A stretch of DNA of 64,000 nt. It comes from Erythrobacter sp. AP23 (lineage in GTDB: Bacteria > Pseudomonadota > Alphaproteobacteria > Sphingomonadales > Sphingomonadaceae). The position numbers were made by a program, and so were the translations under genes. The notes under the pieces are model-generated. The model made no database searches and was not told the origin of the DNA. It saw only the letters and a program-made list of their open reading frames with translations. Positions 20,673 to 43,889 of this stretch are shown piece by piece; position 1 is the stretch's first letter; each line of letters begins with the position of its first letter. The stretch spans positions 1 to 64,000 of the forward strand of contig NZ_LNBY01000004.1 in the NCBI RefSeq assembly GCF_001542855.1, in the 5' to 3' direction.

Positions 20673-21707
20673 TCAGCTACAGGCGCTCGGTCGGTCCGCC
20701 TTGATTCGAGATGCAATCGTGGTCGTGCGCAGTTGGATCAGAGATCTGTTGCACTTCCTGAGTTGAAAGCGCACCTTGCGGTCCTTGAAGTCGAGCGACA
20801 CCCGGCGAAAGTTCTCCATCAGGTCGGTGCCCAGCAGCAGCGACGGCTGGTCTGCCAGTCCGAAGACCTCGAACGGGGGAATGTCGGCAAAGGCGATTGG
20901 AACATTGCGCAATAGGACGGGGCCCAGCTTCAGTTCCCTGACCACTAGGAAGTCGAGCTCTAGTTCTTTGCCGGTAACCCCATAAACCTTGATCTTGCGA
21001 AGGTCGCTCGTGCGTCTGAGGGCCAGCTTGTCGCGCAGAGCAACGTTGCCGATGGTGATTTCGGAGCCGGTATCCACCACCGCATCGACCTTTTCCTTGC
21101 CCGCCGTCACTTCGGTCAGGATCAATTGGCCTCGCTGCAGCCGGCCCTTCACGATGATCATTCCGTCCATCAGCGGGGCCGGAGTAAAACCATCGTCGAC
21201 GCTGATGTGACGTTCATCGAAATCGATCAGCAAACGCTGTTCGACCAGCGCGTCGAGGCCAATCATGCCATCACCGCCCAAGTCGCGCTCGTCGAGCACG
21301 GGCAATTCGAGTTCGGTGGTTGCCGTGGGGCCGAGCATGATCTCGTCGACAAACACGCGATCGACCACCTTGCTTTCGGTAACGCCGTGCAACATCGCCG
21401 GCGTACCCGGTGGCATGGCAAGTTCGCCAGCCAGTCTTGCACCGACGACCGATGTGTCCGCTCCGCTGTCGACGACGAACTTGTGCGGGCCGGTGCCATT
21501 GACCATGACATCCACTGTCATGCGGCTACGCAGTTTCCGCGCGCCGATCTCCTCACCTCCTATGGCGAGGTTTTCATCGAACTCCGCCGGCGATATCTCG
21601 GGAATTCGCAAACCGGAGTCTCCCGAAACGGGGGCCTCCTGCGCGGAGGCGACGGTCGCGGTGCACAAGAGTGCAGCAAGAGCGGTCGAGATCACTTCTT
21701 TGATCAC
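20673..21707 (-). CDS. exported protein with two retropepsin-like aspartic protease domains
   Basis: A 344-residue protein with a signal peptide of about 22 residues (VASAQ). It carries two tandem copies of a retropepsin-like half. The first has the active-site triad Asp80-Ser-Gly (VVDSGADTS) and the flap-and-loop end GMIGLDAL at 147-154. The second has Asp212-Thr-Gly (VVDTGSEIT) and LLGTDLM at 291-297. Most bacterial retropepsin-like proteins carry one such half and must dimerise; here both aspartates lie in one chain, as in pepsin. It is likely periplasmic. A Cys/Arg-rich tail follows the second domain. It is convergent to nusG and tandem with the histidine kinase gene upstream on its own strand. 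Substrate unknown. Confidence 0.82.
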   Translation of the reverse strand: MIKEVISTALAALLCTATVASAQEAPVSGDSGLRIPEISPAEFDENLAIGGEEIGARKLRSRMTVDVMVNGTGPHKFVVDSGADTSVVGARLAGELAMPPGTPAMLHGVTESKVVDRVFVDEIMLGPTATTELELPVLDERDLGGDGMIGLDALVEQRLLIDFDERHISVDDGFTPAPLMDGMIIVKGRLQRGQLILTEVTAGKEKVDAVVDTGSEITIGNVALRDKLALRRTSDLRKIKVYGVTGKELELDFLVVRELKLGPVLLRNVPIAFADIPPFEVFGLADQPSLLLGTDLMENFRRVSLDFKDRKVRFQLRKCNRSLIQLRTTTIASRIKADRPSACS

Positions 21708-21910: not shown

Positions 21911-23137
21911 CTATTTCAACCCGAAATTCTCATCGACCAAGCGGGCCGCGAGCGTTGCGGTATCGGTATCCTCGGGATTGGCCAGCACGGCAGAGGCCGG
22001 TGCCTTGAGGCGATATTCGAGCACGCCGTCGTCGATTGAGCGCGTCGCTTCACCGCGCAGCACCTGGGGCACGATGCGGGTGAGCAGCTTCGTGCCGAAA
22101 CCACCTTCTCCTGCCGGCGTGTCGCTTGCCGTCTCGCCAGTCGGGTGAGTTTCGCGCCATACGAGAACGAACCGCTGGTCTTCATCGGCTCCCTCGACAC
22201 CCCAGCTGATGGTGACCTGGGAAGCCGCATCCTGCGAGAGAGAGTATTTTTGCGCATTGGTGGCGAGTTCGTGAACGGCGAGCGAGATCTGCTGCGCAGC
22301 TTCGCTGACAATCTGGGTCGGCGGCCCATCCAGATTGACCCGTTTGCCGTATGTCAGCAGTACGGGATCGAGCTGCTGGCGCATAATGGTCGCCAGGTCG
22401 CCGGAAAGATGATCGTCGCCACGCACGACGGTCGATGTGGCCATTGCCAGCGAGTGAATGCGTCCGAGCAAGGCTTCGATGAAATCCTCGGTCCGCTCGT
22501 GGCCCCGCGCCGTCTGCCGGGTGAGCGAGGTTACGACCGACAGCAGGTTGGCACTGCGGTGCACCGCTTCGCGAGTTTGCACGGCAAGCCTGGTATTGGC
22601 CTCGTGCAACTCCTCGGTCCGCTCCGCCACCAAGTCTTCGAGTTTCGCCAGTGTCGCCTCATGCGCTGCCGCTTCGGCCTGCAAATCGGCCACAAGACTC
22701 TTCAGCTTGGCAAGAGTGTCCTGATGCGCGTCGGCTTCAGCCTGTAGCTTGCTGTTCGCTTCCGATAGCTGTGCCGGAGACGGCAGGGCAACCAGCGTCG
22801 GGATCAGTCGGAACAGGACCACGGCGGTCGCCGCCGAAACGAGACCGGTCGCCAGCTTCAACATGCCAACCCACGGATAGATGGGATACCAAAGCGTGAC
22901 GATGCCCATCAGGTGGGTAAGGCCGCACAGCAGAATAAAACTGGAGAACAGCACCACCAGGCCGGAAAAGGGAATGTCCTGGCGCTTTCGCAGCACCGTC
23001 AGCAGCGCAAGCGGAATGGCCGTGTAGGAAAGGAAGATGATCAGATCGCTGCCAGCCCACAGCGTGACCAGCCACGGTTGCCAGAGCAGGCACATCCCAT
23101 GTGGCATGTATTGCCAGATATCGACGAAACTCTGCAT
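21911..23137 (-). CDS. histidine kinase with ETR1-like ethylene/copper-binding membrane domain (HWE family)
   Basis: A 408-residue sensor kinase. The start at 23137 is fixed by AAGGAG six bases before the ATG. Residues 18-113 form three membrane helices. They carry every residue that matters for Cu(I) and ethylene binding in plant ETR1: Asp25, Tyr32, Pro36, Cys65 and His69 appear as Asp31, Tyr38, Pro42, Cys71 and His75, a constant offset of 6. A coiled coil (123-185) contains a nearly exact 21-residue duplication. The kinase part has the phospho-acceptor in EAVHRSANLL (His193), the N-box HELATNAQKY, the WRE motif (327-329) that marks HWE kinases, and GGFGTKLL. No response regulator is adjacent. 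The ligand, ethylene or another small molecule, is inferred from the family. Confidence 0.88.
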   Translation of the reverse strand: MQSFVDIWQYMPHGMCLLWQPWLVTLWAGSDLIIFLSYTAIPLALLTVLRKRQDIPFSGLVVLFSSFILLCGLTHLMGIVTLWYPIYPWVGMLKLATGLVSAATAVVLFRLIPTLVALPSPAQLSEANSKLQAEADAHQDTLAKLKSLVADLQAEAAAHEATLAKLEDLVAERTEELHEANTRLAVQTREAVHRSANLLSVVTSLTRQTARGHERTEDFIEALLGRIHSLAMATSTVVRGDDHLSGDLATIMRQQLDPVLLTYGKRVNLDGPPTQIVSEAAQQISLAVHELATNAQKYSLSQDAASQVTISWGVEGADEDQRFVLVWRETHPTGETASDTPAGEGGFGTKLLTRIVPQVLRGEATRSIDDGVLEYRLKAPASAVLANPEDTDTATLAARLVDENFGLK

Positions 23138-38634: not shown

Positions 38635-39498
38635 TCAGCAGGCTGCAGCCCGCAATCGCTGTTCGGCGCGCGAAACATTACCCATGATCGGAGAGTAGAG
38701 CGAGGATCCGAACTCGGAAGGTTTGAACTTGTCGGTCTGCCCAACCACCGTCTCGCCGGCACCCAGCATGAGCCACCCGTCGGCAGCGATCCCGCTGGCC
38801 AGCCTGTCGAAGGCTTTAGCCCTCGTCTCCGGGTCGAAATAGAGCAGTACGTTGCGACACATGACCAGGTCGAACCGGCCCGGCGCGGGCGGATAGTCGA
38901 GAATGTTGTGCTGCTGGAAGCGGATCATGGCACGAATCCTGTCCGCCGCCTGCCAGTGTCCCTCGTCCTCGGTGAAGAAGTTCAGCATCTGCGCGACGCT
39001 GATCCCACGCTGAATTTCGAACTGGGTATAGCGTCCGTTGCGTGCGGTCTCGATCGCCTTGTTCGACACGTCGGTGCCAAGGATTTCGATTCGCCAGTCC
39101 TTCCACCGATTGGGTTGTTCGGCAAAGATCATTGCGAGGCTGAGTGCTTCCTGGCCGGTCGAACAGCCGGCCGACCAGATCCTCAGCCGCTTCGTGCTTT
39201 CGCGCTTGCGTGCGAGATCGGGCAAGACCTGGTTCGACAGAGCCGAGAAATAGGAATGATCGCGAAAGAAATAGGTTTCGTTATTGAGCAGCGCTTCGAC
39301 CACCCGCGTGGCGAGGCGATGCTCACTGGGGCGCTCGAGCATGCAGGCGAGCTGATCGACGTTCTCGATACCGAATTCGCGGAAGAGGCCGGACAGTGCG
39401 CCGGAGACACGCCAGCGACGGCCTTCGGTAAGTTGCTGCCCCGTACGCTGCGCAAGAAGGTCACCGATGATGCGGTGCGACGCGTCATCTACCGCCAT
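38635..39498 (-). CDS. cheR: chemotaxis methyltransferase CheR
   Basis: A 287-residue SAM-dependent methyltransferase that methylates glutamates of chemoreceptors. The N-terminal helical domain (ETYFFRDHSYF near residue 77) is followed by the SAM-binding domain with WSAGCSTGQEALSLAM near 110 and DLVMCRNVLLYFDPETRAKAF near 200, all CheR signatures. The ATG at 39498 is used; the frame continues upstream into cheB, with which it overlaps by ten bases, so coupling is expected. No pentapeptide-tethered receptor was found here. Confidence 0.95.
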   Translation of the reverse strand: MAVDDASHRIIGDLLAQRTGQQLTEGRRWRVSGALSGLFREFGIENVDQLACMLERPSEHRLATRVVEALLNNETYFFRDHSYFSALSNQVLPDLARKRESTKRLRIWSAGCSTGQEALSLAMIFAEQPNRWKDWRIEILGTDVSNKAIETARNGRYTQFEIQRGISVAQMLNFFTEDEGHWQAADRIRAMIRFQQHNILDYPPAPGRFDLVMCRNVLLYFDPETRAKAFDRLASGIAADGWLMLGAGETVVGQTDKFKPSEFGSSLYSPIMGNVSRAEQRLRAAAC

Positions 39499-40586
39499 GC
39501 GGCGGCTCCTGCGCTTGCAAGGAGGCGGTCCGCCAGTTCGGCCGGTGGCAGAACGGCCGCAGCCAGCCCAAGCTCGGTAACGGCACGCGGCATCCCCCAT
39601 ACCGCGCAGGTCTCGGCATTCTGCGCGTATATCGTGCCGCCCGCCGACACCACCGACTGGGCTCCGTCGGTACCATCGCGCCCCATGCCCGACAGCAGCA
39701 CGCCGGCGACGTGCCCGTCATACGCCTCGGCAAGAGTTTCGAACATCGGGTCGACTGAAGGCGTACATCCGCTTTTTACCGGATGATAGGCCAGTCCGAG
39801 GACATGGTGTCCGCCCGATTTGCGCACCACCATGTGGCCATGCCCCGGCGCGATATAAATCTTGCCGCGCTCGATCTGAATGCCATCGTCGGCAAGGACC
39901 GCTTCGCGGCCCGCAGCCATCTCCATTTGCTGTGCGAAAACGGGGATGAAACTGGCAGGCAGATGTTGCGTGATCAGGATCGGCAGGTCGAAATTCTTCG
40001 GCACCTGACGCAGGAATAGATTAAGCGCGTGAATCCCGCCGGTCGACGCGCCGATGGCGACGAGCTGCGGCGGCTTGCCAATGCGATCGGCGGCGGTTTT
40101 CGCCACCGCGAGGCCTGCGGCATCGTCCGCCGTGTCACCCCTGAGCGCACGGATCTTGCCAAGAAGGGTGGAGCGATAGTCGTCGTTGAAGCCGCCCGGG
40201 CGCGGCTTGAGCATGGTGTCGGCGGCCCCCAGCGACAGCGCAGTGACCGTCGCCTCTGCTCCATCGGCGGTCAGCGAGGAAATAACCAACACCTGCGTAT
40301 CGGGCGCCGATTGCATGATTTTGGGCAAGGCCGCCAAACCGCCCATGCCCGGCATCTCGAGGTCGAGAAGCATGACATCGGGCGTGGCCGTGGCGAGTTC
40401 GGCAAGGCCGCATTCCGCCGAATTGGCGGTCGCGACGATCCGCATATCGGGTTCCTGCTCGATCATGCGCGAGAAAACGGTGCGCACGGTCAGTGAATCG
40501 TCGACGATCATCACCCGCACGGGATCGCTGCATGGTCGGGTATCAGCGCCCGAGACTAAGGCATCGGAACGGAGGAGTGCGCCCAT
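39489..40586 (-). CDS. cheB: chemotaxis methylesterase/response regulator CheB
   Basis: A 365-residue two-domain protein. The receiver domain (about 22-140) has Asp29-Asp30 and phospho-acceptor Asp75 (LLDLEMPG). After a linker, the methylesterase domain (about 172-360) carries the catalytic triad Ser181 (GASTGG), His208 (TQHLP) and Asp304 (SGMGRDG). It removes receptor methyl groups when phosphorylated by CheA. The stop overlaps cheR by ten bases, and cheY precedes it by 11. Confidence 0.96.
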   Translation of the reverse strand: MGALLRSDALVSGADTRPCSDPVRVMIVDDSLTVRTVFSRMIEQEPDMRIVATANSAECGLAELATATPDVMLLDLEMPGMGGLAALPKIMQSAPDTQVLVISSLTADGAEATVTALSLGAADTMLKPRPGGFNDDYRSTLLGKIRALRGDTADDAAGLAVAKTAADRIGKPPQLVAIGASTGGIHALNLFLRQVPKNFDLPILITQHLPASFIPVFAQQMEMAAGREAVLADDGIQIERGKIYIAPGHGHMVVRKSGGHHVLGLAYHPVKSGCTPSVDPMFETLAEAYDGHVAGVLLSGMGRDGTDGAQSVVSAGGTIYAQNAETCAVWGMPRAVTELGLAAAVLPPAELADRLLASAGAAAWR

Positions 40587-40597
40587 ATCACGCCTCC

Positions 40598-40963
40598 TCA
40601 GGCCATGCCGACAAGCTGGAGCTTGATCTGCAAGGTTTCGTGATCGAACGGCTTCATGACGTATTCGTCCGCACCCGCGCTAATCGCCTCGCGAATGTGC
40701 GCGACGTCGTTTTCGGTGGTGCAGAACACGACCTTAGGCTTGTCGCCGCCATCGCGCTGGCGCAGCTGCGTGATGAACTCGATCCCCGTCATGACCGGCA
40801 TGTTCCAGTCGAGCAGGATAACGTCGGGCATGTCTTCGGCGCATTTTTCAAGGCCTTCGCGGCCATTCTCGGCTTCCTCGACACTGAAGCCGAGCGTTTC
40901 GAGAATGTGGCGCGAAACCTTCCGGATGACGCGCGAATCATCGACGATAAGGCAGGATTTCAT
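40598..40963 (-). CDS. cheY: response regulator CheY
   Basis: A 121-residue single-domain receiver. Asp8-Asp9, phospho-acceptor Asp52 (LLDWNMPVMTG), the CTTEN switch threonine region and Lys in MKPF are in place. It carries phosphoryl groups from CheA to the output, a motor or another effector. It lies 56 bases after cheW and 11 bases before cheB on the minus strand. Confidence 0.95.
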   Translation of the reverse strand: MKSCLIVDDSRVIRKVSRHILETLGFSVEEAENGREGLEKCAEDMPDVILLDWNMPVMTGIEFITQLRQRDGGDKPKVVFCTTENDVAHIREAISAGADEYVMKPFDHETLQIKLQLVGMA

Positions 40964-41019
40964 TGCAATGACCTCTGGTGTTTTCGAGTATCGTCTATCG
41001 GCGTTAGGTAACTAATCGC

Positions 41020-41454
41020 TTAAGCTGCCCGTGCGATGGGCCCCGATACCAACGCTTCGACATCGATGATGAGAGTGGGGCCGCCGTCCGTTTCCACCAT
41101 TCCACGCGCGGCGGTCTGCCATCCGGCGCCGAAACCGCCGGGAACGGCGATCGGTTCGCTTCGGGCCTCGCCGACATCGTAGGCTGCATCTACCAGCAAG
41201 GCATAGGGATGGCCGTCGACCTGCACCACGGCAGCGCGCTGGCCGCGTACATCCTGCCGGCTATCGAAACCAAGGGCGACCTGACAGTCGATCACGGTCA
41301 GCGCCTGGCTGCGCAGAGCGGTGAGGCCGAGGATGAACGGGGCTACACCGGGTATGGGCGTGATCTCGTCGATTTCGATGACCGACTGAACTTCGGCCGC
41401 GGGAATTGCGGCACGACGCCCGGCGATCAGGCACATGAGAAGAAGTTCGTTCAT
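41020..41454 (-). CDS. cheW: chemotaxis coupling protein CheW
   Basis: A 144-residue CheW that joins receptors to CheA in the signalling array. The fold begins MNELLLMCLIAGRRAAIPA and contains the family stretch PFILGLTALRSQALTVIDC near residue 40. The ATG overlaps the cheA stop as ATGA, a tight coupling that keeps the two in proportion. No unusual extension. Confidence 0.93.
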   Translation of the reverse strand: MNELLLMCLIAGRRAAIPAAEVQSVIEIDEITPIPGVAPFILGLTALRSQALTVIDCQVALGFDSRQDVRGQRAAVVQVDGHPYALLVDAAYDVGEARSEPIAVPGGFGAGWQTAARGMVETDGGPTLIIDVEALVSGPIARAA

Positions 41455-43838
41455 GCTGTCTTCCCCATGCGGGCTTGCTTGAGCGCGTCGAGCAGCCCCT
41501 CTCGATCGTAACGATAAATGCTGTCGTTCCCGCTTCCATCCGCTTCGGGATCGGAGCGCAGGCGTATGACATGACGAGCACGGGCAGCGAGGGGCGTCTC
41601 GCTCTCGACGAGTTCGATCGCCACGTCGGTTTCTTCATCCTTGTCGGTCGACACCTTGTAGCCGGCCGCCGCGACCAGCGGCTCGAGGATCGTGCGCGCC
41701 CAATCGCTATCGGAGGGCAGGCGGCAGGAAACCGGCCGGGCGTGCGCGTTCGGCTTGCGGTGGTTGGCGAACAGCGCGTGCCCGTCGATCACCGGGACCG
41801 GCTGACCGCCGATCAGTGCGACGCCTTCGACGTGGGGATCGGCGCTCGACGGAACGATCTCGCCGTCCATTTCGGCGGCGTCGAGGACTTCGCGCACGGC
41901 ATAGACGACCTCGCAATCGCCATCGGAGAGGCGCAGCAAGCGGCATTTCTCTTCGGGCAGCTCGCCATATTCGAGCCCGACGAGCGAGAATATCTCGCCG
42001 TCGATCACAGCCTGAGTGCGTGTGCCCTCGATGTCGATGGCGTCGCGGGCGATCGTATCGATCCGGCGGACCAGGTCCAGTCGGACTGCGCGGCGGCGAC
42101 CATCGAGGCCGGTGAAGAGCATGATCGGATGCGTCTTGCGTTCTTCGACCGTATCTTCTTCGACAACCCGCGTGGCGCTGCGCATTTCGTTCGCGAGGTG
42201 GTGCTTCTGCGCGATGCTCGGCAGGTCGAGCAGCATCATGGGGCGTCCATCGTCGAGCAGGGTGGTGCCGGCATAGAAGCCGGTTTCCATGATCGCCGGC
42301 GCGATGGGTTTGACGACGACATCCTCGTGGTCGAAGACCCGGTCCACCGCGAGCGCGAATACATCGTTCGAGGCGAGGCGGACCAGGACCAGTGTCTTGC
42401 TTTCCCAGACGACTTCGGCGTTCGTTTCGGTGCCCAGTATCTCGCCCAGAGCAAGGCACGGCACGCGCATGCCGCGGAATGTCACGAGACGACGCTCGCC
42501 GGCTTGAGCGAATTCGACATGGTCGCTCGAACCGAAAACGATTTCCTCGACATAGCTGCGCGGAATTGCATAGCGCTGGCCGCCGCTACCCACAGTCAGC
42601 GCGGCGATAATGCTGAGCGTGAGCGGTAGCTTGAGATGAAAGCTGGTGCCTTCCCCGGGCTTGCTGGTCACATCGATCGATCCGCCGACGCGTTCGATAT
42701 TGGCGCGCACCACATCCATGCCGACGCCGCGTCCGGAAACCGCGCTGACCGCATCGGCGGTCGAAAGGCCCGGTTCGAAGATAAGGTAGAGCCTGCGGCG
42801 CTCCGACATTTCGTCGATTTCCGACTGGCTGTAGATGCCCGCTGCAACCGCCTTGACCGCGAGCCGAGCCGTGTCGATGCCTCGCCCGTCGTCGCTGATC
42901 ACCAGGGTGATCTGGTTGCCTGCCTGCCGCGCCGCGAATTTGAGCAAGCCGGTCTCGTGTTTGTCCGCCTTGATCCTCTCGCCGGGACCCTCGAGGCCGT
43001 GGTCGAGGGCGTTGCGGATGATATGTGTCAGCGGGTCGCGGACCATCTCGACCATTTCGCGATCGAGTTCGACCTCGCCGCCTTCGAATTCGACCGTGAC
43101 CTGTTTGCCGAGCTCGTTCGAAAGGTCGCGAACGAGGCGCGGTAGCGAGCTGAACAGATGTTCGAGCCGCTGCATGCGCATACGCGTGATGGCACTACGG
43201 ACATCGGCGAGGATGGTGCTCAGGCGATCGAAGGGGCCGTCGATGGTGGGCTGTTCCCCGGCCTCGCGCAGTCGCCGCGCCAGGTCGTTGCGGGCAAGAA
43301 CCATGTCGGACACGCCCTTCATGACCTCGTCGAGCAGTTCGGTCGGGAGGCGGATCGAGCGCTGGACGCCGGGATTGCGCGCCGCCTTTTGAGCCGGGGC
43401 GTCCTCGGCGCTGGCATCCAGCGTCGGGGCAGCTTGTGCGGCGGGTGCGGAGACAGTCGCAACTTCGGCCTCACCCGGCTGCAGGGCGGCGATCAACTCG
43501 TCGTCGCCACCGTCGGAAAGTTCCTCGCCGGCTTCGATCGAATCGGTCATTTCGCTGATACGGTCGATAATCGCGAGAACGGCGGAAACCAGCGCGGCAT
43601 CGGGCTCGCGGCGACCGGCGCGGCAATCGGCCAGCGCGTCTTCCGCTGCGTGGCTGAGTTTTTCCAGACGCGGGAAATCGAAGAAACCGCAATTGCCCTT
43701 CACGGTATGGACGAAACGAAAAATGGTATCGAGCCGCGCCTTGTCCGTCGGATCGGCTTCCCAGGCGACGATCTCGCCGCCGCTCGCTTCCAGCATTTCC
43801 CGGGTTTCCGCGACGAAATCCGCCAGCAGGTCATCCAT
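41451..43838 (-). CDS. cheA: chemotaxis histidine kinase CheA with two CheW-like domains and a degenerate receiver
   Basis: A 795-residue CheA. The ATG at 43838 has GAGGGG nine bases upstream; a start at 43880 would add 14 residues. The Hpt domain carries the phospho-acceptor His44 (RFVHTVKGN). A short linker replaces P2. The dimerisation helices lie about 170-235, the ATPase domain about 240-410 (NALDHGLEG, DDGRGID, GRGVGMDVV), and a CheW-like domain about 415-560. A second CheW-like module follows at about 570-690, then a receiver-like domain at about 700-790. The latter keeps the pattern of a CheA terminal receiver (AAAGYKVST, YDREGLLDAL) but has no paired acidic residues and no phospho-acceptor Asp. 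It is the first gene of the cluster. Confidence 0.93.
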   Translation of the reverse strand: MDDLLADFVAETREMLEASGGEIVAWEADPTDKARLDTIFRFVHTVKGNCGFFDFPRLEKLSHAAEDALADCRAGRREPDAALVSAVLAIIDRISEMTDSIEAGEELSDGGDDELIAALQPGEAEVATVSAPAAQAAPTLDASAEDAPAQKAARNPGVQRSIRLPTELLDEVMKGVSDMVLARNDLARRLREAGEQPTIDGPFDRLSTILADVRSAITRMRMQRLEHLFSSLPRLVRDLSNELGKQVTVEFEGGEVELDREMVEMVRDPLTHIIRNALDHGLEGPGERIKADKHETGLLKFAARQAGNQITLVISDDGRGIDTARLAVKAVAAGIYSQSEIDEMSERRRLYLIFEPGLSTADAVSAVSGRGVGMDVVRANIERVGGSIDVTSKPGEGTSFHLKLPLTLSIIAALTVGSGGQRYAIPRSYVEEIVFGSSDHVEFAQAGERRLVTFRGMRVPCLALGEILGTETNAEVVWESKTLVLVRLASNDVFALAVDRVFDHEDVVVKPIAPAIMETGFYAGTTLLDDGRPMMLLDLPSIAQKHHLANEMRSATRVVEEDTVEERKTHPIMLFTGLDGRRRAVRLDLVRRIDTIARDAIDIEGTRTQAVIDGEIFSLVGLEYGELPEEKCRLLRLSDGDCEVVYAVREVLDAAEMDGEIVPSSADPHVEGVALIGGQPVPVIDGHALFANHRKPNAHARPVSCRLPSDSDWARTILEPLVAAAGYKVSTDKDEETDVAIELVESETPLAARARHVIRLRSDPEADGSGNDSIYRYDREGLLDALKQARMGKTA

Positions 43839-43889
43839 GATACAAGGCCCCTCGTACGATCGCGAAAGGCTATGGACCAAGATGGTTAA

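What the first reader, a model, noticed from the sequence alone, without database searches (positions are those of the whole stretch)
21911..23137. HWE histidine kinase with a plant ETR1-type ethylene/copper-binding membrane domain
The three-helix N-terminus keeps Asp31, Tyr38, Pro42, Cys71 and His75, aligning with ETR1 Asp25, Tyr32, Pro36, Cys65 and His69 at one constant offset of 6. Cys65 and His69 hold Cu(I) in ETR1. The output is not an ETR1-like HisKA kinase but an HWE kinase (WRE motif, HELATNAQKY). No partner regulator lies next to it, and the gene sits within the secE-nusG/rplKA region. What a marine alphaproteobacterium would do with ethylene or a related signal is open.
Basis: partly seen in the sequence, partly recalled or inferred. 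Interest (0 to 1): 0.78.

Follow-up and report, generated by a model that had tools for sequence, protein, structure and literature searches.

The report
Ethylene-receptor-like bacterial sensor kinase
A bacterium of a largely marine group carries a membrane sensor whose front part matches the ethylene (plant-hormone) receptor and whose back part is a kinase class often used in bacterial stress signalling; the front part is known in many bacteria, and this pairing looks like a distinct variant whose signal and target are still untested.

Summary
Window 21911-23137, minus strand, encodes 408 aa: an ETR1_N ethylene-binding domain (EBD; Pfam E 2.7e-32), a coiled coil and an HWE histidine kinase (E 1.3e-15). 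The counterparts of ETR1 C65, H69, D25 and K91 are present (C71, H75, D31, K94). A profile from 50 non-HWE relatives finds it at 2.4e-44; 1000 shuffles reach at most 9.8 bits. The domain is not plant-specific: 30 of 298 genomes of the family and 28 of 385 of the class have it, and a 46-48% identical Azospirillum EBD (AzoEtr1) is published as ethylene-binding. The 20 HWE-type rows form one clade (support 100/100) with its own sensor signature. No regulator lies beside the gene; the genome has a phyR-nepR-ecfG stress locus, the usual target of HRxxN/HWE kinases. Best reading: a Cu(I)-dependent ethylene (or small-alkene) receptor gating an HWE kinase, probably feeding the general stress response. 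Ligand and target are inferred. The gene is dispensable: two relatives hold deleted copies in place. By-catch: marine Maribacter phages encode an ETR1_N protein.

The parts
21911..23137 (-). EBD-HWE sensor histidine kinase, 408 aa, with stop codon
22784..23071 (-). ETR1_N ethylene-binding domain (residues 23-118), three membrane helices
   Evidence: Pfam PF25487; helices 21-51, 58-83, 87-117 in a model of mean pLDDT 92.5
22913..22927 (-). C71-G-L-T-H75, counterpart of the Cu(I) ligand pair C65/H69 of ETR1
   Evidence: C in 67, H in 70 of 70 rows
23090..23104 (-). PHGMC, residues 12-16, motif conserved in bacterial EBDs
   Evidence: H13 in 66, C16 in 68 of 70 rows
22502..22777 (-). long helix (residues 121-212) leading from sensor to kinase, probably a coiled coil
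   Evidence: model, pLDDT about 61-87 along this stretch
22322..22570 (-). HWE_HK phosphoacceptor domain (residues 190-272), His193 in HRSAN
   Evidence: Pfam PF07536; motif
21971..22321 (-). HWE-type ATP-binding part (about residues 273-389) with HELATNAQKY and WRE
   Evidence: alignment to 5epv
20673..21707 (-). downstream neighbour with two VD(S/T)G motifs (aspartyl-protease-like by eye); probably unrelated
   Evidence: kept in L021 where the kinase is deleted; no match in L013 and L015, on the other side of the kinase in L012

Best explanation
A membrane two-component receptor. Each subunit holds Cu(I) between C71 and H75 in a three-helix membrane bundle (inferred by homology); ethylene, or another small alkene, binds the copper and changes the helix packing; the change passes through the coiled coil to the HWE kinase and alters autophosphorylation of His193 (inferred; direction unknown; PMC11819568 says ethylene inhibits the kinase of ETR1 and, by indirect evidence, of SynEtr1). 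With no partner gene nearby, the phosphoryl group most likely goes to the shared general-stress regulator PhyR, directly or through a single-domain regulator, which would release EcfG (inferred). In surface water the signal would report sunlight on dissolved organics, or algae (inferred). Shown: domains, residues, kinase motifs, conservation, PhyR system in the genome. Not shown: ligand, copper, phosphotransfer. The confidence is for the receptor part (copper-dependent ethylene or alkene input, HWE kinase output); PhyR as the target I hold at about 0.5 on top of that.
For: ETR1_N 2.7e-32 and HWE_HK 1.3e-15. The seven ETR1 binding residues (three of them from print, four recalled) are present in the window protein and in 20 of 20 clade rows. 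EBD 46.7-48.3% identical over 120 aa to Azospirillum proteins; one fetched copy (L082) is 525 aa, EBD+PAS+HisKA, with D35, C75, H79, K98 and a regulator match just downstream, which is the size, numbering and layout of AzoEtr1, whose first 130 residues bind ethylene saturably (PMC11819568, that section read). The EBD is the most constrained large part: dN/dS 0.055-0.193 against 0.153-0.314 in the kinase for four relatives. HRxxN as in the seven Sphingomonas Paks (PMC5898713 passages). On G000:C18: PhyR (L105:4210-5001), CHASE-HWE kinase, NepR, EcfG-like sigma factor. A Blastomonas plasmid relative lies beside two single-domain regulators (one over the Pfam cut-off, the other below it).
Against: No binding data. 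The clade is set off by a long branch (1.2 changes per column) and 20 clade-specific positions, which would also fit a changed ligand. The strict hub-regulator motif PFxFATG of SdrG/MrrA was not found in the genome (exact pattern only) nor in the regulator loci fetched. Paks are cytoplasmic; this is a membrane protein. Patchy and losable: 268 of 298 family genomes have no EBD match; L021 keeps only residues 1-20 and 343-406, L020 lacks residues 1-89. Clade member L049 has lost the phosphoacceptor His and the N-box. The full-length model is only moderate (pTM 0.52).
Confidence: 0.6

Rival explanations
1. The copper site is kept but the physiological ligand is something else: copper status itself, CO, NO or another small hydrocarbon; the protein is a membrane copper- or gas-sensing HWE kinase.
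For: 20 positions are held in at least 17 of 20 clade rows and by fewer than 10 of the other 50 rows, among them W22, W27, G29, F35, A40, P88, G98; long stem branch. A conserved His/Cys pair (H13, C16) of unknown role.
Against: The ETR1 binding residues are kept in 20 of 20 clade rows; the rows lacking one of D31, Y38, P42, C71, H75 (L072 partial, L073, L074, L079) are outside the clade.
Confidence: 0.22
2. Output goes to a private regulator, not to PhyR: a single-domain regulator elsewhere in the genome, as with AzoEtr1 and the Blastomonas plasmid, perhaps acting on motility or surface attachment.
For: Blastomonas plasmid: kinase beside two single-domain regulators. The genome has several orphan single-domain regulators and a chemotaxis-like cluster in the window with a CheY-like frame at 40598-40963. 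SynEtr1 and AzoEtr1 act on biofilm or phototaxis (PMC11819568 passages and introduction).
Against: No clear orthologue of the plasmid regulator P0004 in the genome: best match 34% identity, in a long reading frame (P0003 was not searched there). Among 28 other sequences only L090 had a match near an EBD-HWE gene, 3 kb away (this search would miss divergent regulators).
Confidence: 0.35
3. Decaying passenger with no present function.
For: Two deleted copies at the same site in relatives; 30 of 298 family genomes and 2 of the 5 same-genus genomes in the listing have the domain.
Against: dN/dS below 0.32 in EBD and kinase with dS of 0.7 or more; intact catalytic motifs; kept in two Cognatishimia at 50-51% identity.
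Confidence: 0.06

Closest known systems
AzoEtr1 of Azospirillum brasilense (PMC11819568: introduction, first results section, passages)
   Same: Three-helix EBD, D/C/H/K residues at one offset, PHGxC motif (seen in L082), histidine kinase output, alphaproteobacterium
   Different: PAS and a HisKA-type kinase (L082) and an overlapping single-domain regulator gene; soil and roots
SynEtr1 (slr1212) of Synechocystis (through passages of PMC11819568 and PMC7700396)
   Same: EBD, kinase output
   Different: GAF light-sensing domain, regulator slr1213; HisKA-type kinase (recalled)
Plant ETR1
   Same: EBD and its binding residues
   Different: GAF domain, HisKA-type kinase, output mainly through CTR1, no PHGxC at that place (all recalled)
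HWE/HRxxN kinases of the alphaproteobacterial general stress response (Paks; blue-light HWE kinase structures 5epv, 6ph4)
   Same: HWE phosphoacceptor and ATP-binding parts, HRxxN
   Different: Sensors are other domains (CHASE in the kinase of this genome's phyR locus; PAS, GAF, LOV elsewhere); Paks are cytoplasmic

Membership tests
Ethylene-binding domain proteins (ETR1_N, PF25487) | Profile match over the curated cut-off | tested here: met
   111.3 bits against 27
Ethylene-binding domain proteins (ETR1_N, PF25487) | Three membrane helices | tested here: met
   model helices 21-51, 58-83, 87-117, mean pLDDT 92.5; predicted, not observed
Ethylene-binding domain proteins (ETR1_N, PF25487) | Residues needed for ethylene binding in ETR1 | tested here: met
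   D31, C71, H75, K94 against published D25, C65, H69, K91; Y38, I41, P42, I68 against recalled Y32, I35, P36, I62
Ethylene-binding domain proteins (ETR1_N, PF25487) | Cu(I) and saturable ethylene binding | not testable with these tools
   needs bench work
Plant-type ethylene receptor (ETR1) | GAF domain and HisKA-type kinase (recalled definition) | tested here: not met
   only ETR1_N and HWE_HK are over their cut-offs
HWE histidine kinase (PF07536) | Profile match, HELATNA-type N-box, WxE | tested here: met
   58.3 bits against 22.8; motifs
PhyR-feeding general stress kinase (Pak type) | HRxxN motif | tested here: met
   HRSAN at 193-197
PhyR-feeding general stress kinase (Pak type) | PhyR-NepR-EcfG in the same genome | tested here: met
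PhyR-feeding general stress kinase (Pak type) | Cytoplasmic | tested here: not met
   three predicted membrane helices
PhyR-feeding general stress kinase (Pak type) | Phosphotransfer to PhyR or SdrG | not testable with these tools
   needs bench work

The most novel reading that the evidence does not exclude
A gas input to the general stress response: in Erythrobacteraceae an ethylene-receptor domain was joined once to an HWE kinase, so that ethylene from sunlit organic matter or algae sets the PhyR-NepR-EcfG programme. A plant-hormone sensor would then act as a bacterial daylight or algal-neighbour stress sensor.
Probability: 0.3. Interest if true: 0.72.

Novelty: new variant of a known kind. 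Interest (0 to 1): 0.5.

Why it matters
By PMC11819568 (introduction), direct ethylene binding to a defined microbial receptor had been shown only in Synechocystis and one fungus before Azospirillum. The Azospirillum-type protein has PAS and HisKA output. This clade offers a short receptor (about 380-410 aa) with no PAS or GAF domain, so ethylene control of a bacterial kinase could be measured directly. No solved structure of the ethylene-binding domain was found by sequence profile or by fold, and the model is confident, so these proteins may be useful structural targets. If the PhyR link is right, it would give the alphaproteobacterial general stress response a gas signal.

Tried and rejected
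Plant origin of the domain: not needed; it is spread through Alphaproteobacteria and occurs in cyanobacteria. Functional link to nusG-rplK: rejected; 10 other copies at 50% identity or more show neither gene in the stretch fetched (L014, L017, L018, L019, L087, L088, L090-L093; L014 has only about 200 bases on one side). Partner by neighbourhood: none in the window; the Blastomonas plasmid is the one clear case. Viral contigs with the window EBD: none. Fold search of the EBD in PDB: no match below E 2.5. The full-length model was not fold-searched (one search failed). Model coordinates were not at hand, so distances from H13/C16 to the copper site could not be measured. Wang 2006 and Lacey 2016 are not held; Carlew 2019, the survey most likely to list this architecture, was not looked up and is known only as a reference in PMC11819568. 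Searches for EBD with HWE in print: 0 papers; 2 papers; one opened for the word ethylene, nothing to the point; the other not opened; 9 listed, none opened; 42 papers, 8 listed; of those only PMC6682694 and PMC9603746 were opened, for passages. So I do not claim that it is unreported.

Full report
Observation. The gene lies on the minus strand, 23137 down to 21911, 408 aa, with AAGGAG five bases before the ATG. Pfam gives ETR1_N, residues 23-118, E 2.7e-32, and HWE_HK, residues 190-272, E 1.3e-15. NCBIfam gives only matches far below cut-off, the best to a subfamily model and to blue-light HWE-type kinases; the only PDB sequences below E 0.01 are the blue-light kinases 5epv and 6ph4, over the kinase part. 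A profile of the 50 A3 rows outside the HWE clade gives P0001 146.4 bits (2.4e-44); the best other window ORF in my list gets 4.0 bits and the best of 1000 shuffles 9.8.

Anatomy. The EBD model from 64 rows has mean pLDDT 92.5 and helices 21-51, 58-83 and 87-117, after a short helix 13-17. The full-length model (mean pLDDT 78.6, pTM 0.52) has a helix 121-212 running into the kinase. The kinase keeps His193 in HRSAN, HELATNAQKY and WRE.

Spread of the sensor. ETR1_N is in 30 of 298 genomes of the family sample and 28 of 385 of the class sample, the window's genome counted in both, and once in the window's genome. Of the five same-genus genomes visible in the listing, two have it. Of 67 EBD proteins scanned, 34 match HisKA, 28 HWE_HK and 8 HisKA_2. 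HWE_HK also matches HisKA_2-type proteins less well (2 of 2 looked at singly), so about 21 are HWE proper: the 19 of alignment A2 (19 of 19) and L076 and L077, which score over the HWE cut-off but whose EBD-like part shows no C-G-x-T-H-type motif.

Of the 30 family genomes, 10 carry the HWE type: G000 and the nine behind L041-L049 (L045 by motif only). The genome-contig scan gave 12 loci with relatives of P0001: Qipengyuania, Erythrobacter, Alteripontixanthobacter, two MAGs (one named Altererythrobacter) and two Cognatishimia (Paracoccaceae). That scan uses exact short patterns and finds close relatives only.

Conservation. A3 holds 63 loci that score at least 100 bits with my own profile, the window and six plasmid rows, so it leans towards good members. 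C71 is kept in 67, H75 in 70, D31, Y38, I41, P42 and K94 in 68, I68 in 67 of 70. H13 is kept in 66 and C16 in 68 of 70, in a motif PHGxC just before the first helix, cyanobacterial rows included. Its role is unknown; a periplasmic disulfide or a copper-entry site are guesses. On the A3 tree the 20 HWE rows are one side of a branch with support 100/100, in 100% of 200 bootstrap trees, stem length 1.2; only 123 columns were used, the bootstrap had not fully settled and many other forks are open. L076 and L077 fell below the score limit and are not in the tree; they may be a second, separate pairing.

Genome site. The gene lies between nusG and rplK, on the opposite strand, in the window and in L011, L012, L013, L015 and L089; one flank is seen in L010 and L016. 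At that site L020 (Erythrobacter sp. SD-21) has a copy without residues 1-89, and L021 (Q. mesophila) only residues 1-20 and 343-406. In 10 other copies neither gene is in the stretch fetched. So the site is inherited rather than functional, and the gene can be lost. Selection on the copies compared is purifying and strongest in the EBD: dN/dS 0.081, 0.055, 0.193, 0.159 for L010-L013, kinase 0.153, 0.214, 0.314, 0.269.

Partner. The nearest receiver domains on the contig are about 17 kb away, in a chemotaxis-like cluster. A tblastn of the two Blastomonas single-domain regulators against 29 sequences matched, besides their own record, L090 (3 kb from its EBD-HWE gene), and L082 and L085, just downstream of their HisKA-type or other EBD genes; divergent regulators would be missed. 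The Blastomonas plasmid pBSY18_2, from an algal phycosphere, has the kinase (51% identical) beside two annotated response regulators and near an integrase; one regulator passes the Pfam cut-off, the other only E 3.4e-4. The window's genome has 40 receiver-domain matches, eight further kinase stretches like this one, and a phyR locus: a single-domain regulator, PhyR (PhyR_sigma2 4e-23, PhyR_sigma-like 9.1e-21, receiver 1.9e-13), a CHASE-HWE kinase, NepR and an EcfG-like sigma factor. PMC5898713 (abstract and passages) says the seven Paks of Sphingomonas belong to HWE/HisKA_2, carry HRxxN and phosphorylate PhyR and SdrG in vitro; PMC5964349 (passages) reports several Caulobacter HWE kinases phosphorylating one hub regulator. 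This makes the stress system the likeliest output, by kinase class only. The strict motif of the hub regulator was not found.

Ligand. PMC11819568 (introduction and first results section read, other passages) reports saturable ethylene binding by AzoEtr1 1-130 in yeast, its loss in disrupted strains, and D35, C75, H79, K98. The Azospirillum copy fetched (L082) has those residues and an EBD 46.7% identical to the window's over 120 aa. PMC6682694 (passages) discusses ethylene made photochemically from dissolved organics in water as a signal for cyanobacteria. Ethylene is therefore the first candidate; the clade's own signature leaves room for another ligand.

Verdict. The sequence claim is right. 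The sensor is a known bacterial domain and the kinase a known class; the one-clade pairing, its spread and the missing partner make it a new variant of a known kind, with a mechanism that bench tests could settle.

Noticed in passing
L141:2932-3801 (+) and L142:1432-2301 (+): Marine Maribacter phages Molly_1 and Colly_1 encode a 289-aa 'hypothetical protein' with ETR1_N over cut-off (60.9 and 59.9 bits, E 1.5e-16 and 3e-16). The Cys-x3-His pair is kept (FCGIGH), while the places of D25 and P36 read N and S. No other Pfam domain; the gene lies directly before an N-acetylmuramoyl-L-alanine amidase gene. hhalign to A3: probability 97.8. The viral fold hit of the same length, TM 0.73, is probably this protein. 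Six GenBank phage records and two RefSeq copies match; a viral-contig scan found only Molly-like DNA again.
   Followed up: partly
L049:634-1911 (-): A clade member with the sensor residues intact but a kinase that has lost the phosphoacceptor His (Q) and the N-box, reminiscent of plant receptors with diverged kinases.
   Followed up: no
L076, L077: HWE kinases with a weak ETR1_N match (37.7 bits; 25.9, below cut-off) and no Cys-His motif of the usual kind; may sense something else.
   Followed up: no
window 23090-23104 (-) and A3 rows: PHGxC motif before the first helix, nearly invariant in alphaproteobacterial and cyanobacterial EBDs; role unknown.
   Followed up: partly
L021:6001-6257; L020:5980-6888: Two in-place deleted copies of the gene between nusG and rplK in relatives.
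   Followed up: partly
window 38635-43880 (-): Chemotaxis-like cluster by eye: CheA-like 41451-43880, CheY-like 40598-40963, CheB-like 39489-40586, CheR-like 38635-39600 (names recalled).
   Followed up: no
L081:312-4095: Blastomonas sp. RAC04 plasmid pBSY18_2 from an algal phycosphere carries an EBD-HWE kinase with two single-domain regulators near an integrase, perhaps a mobile version of the system.
   Followed up: partly
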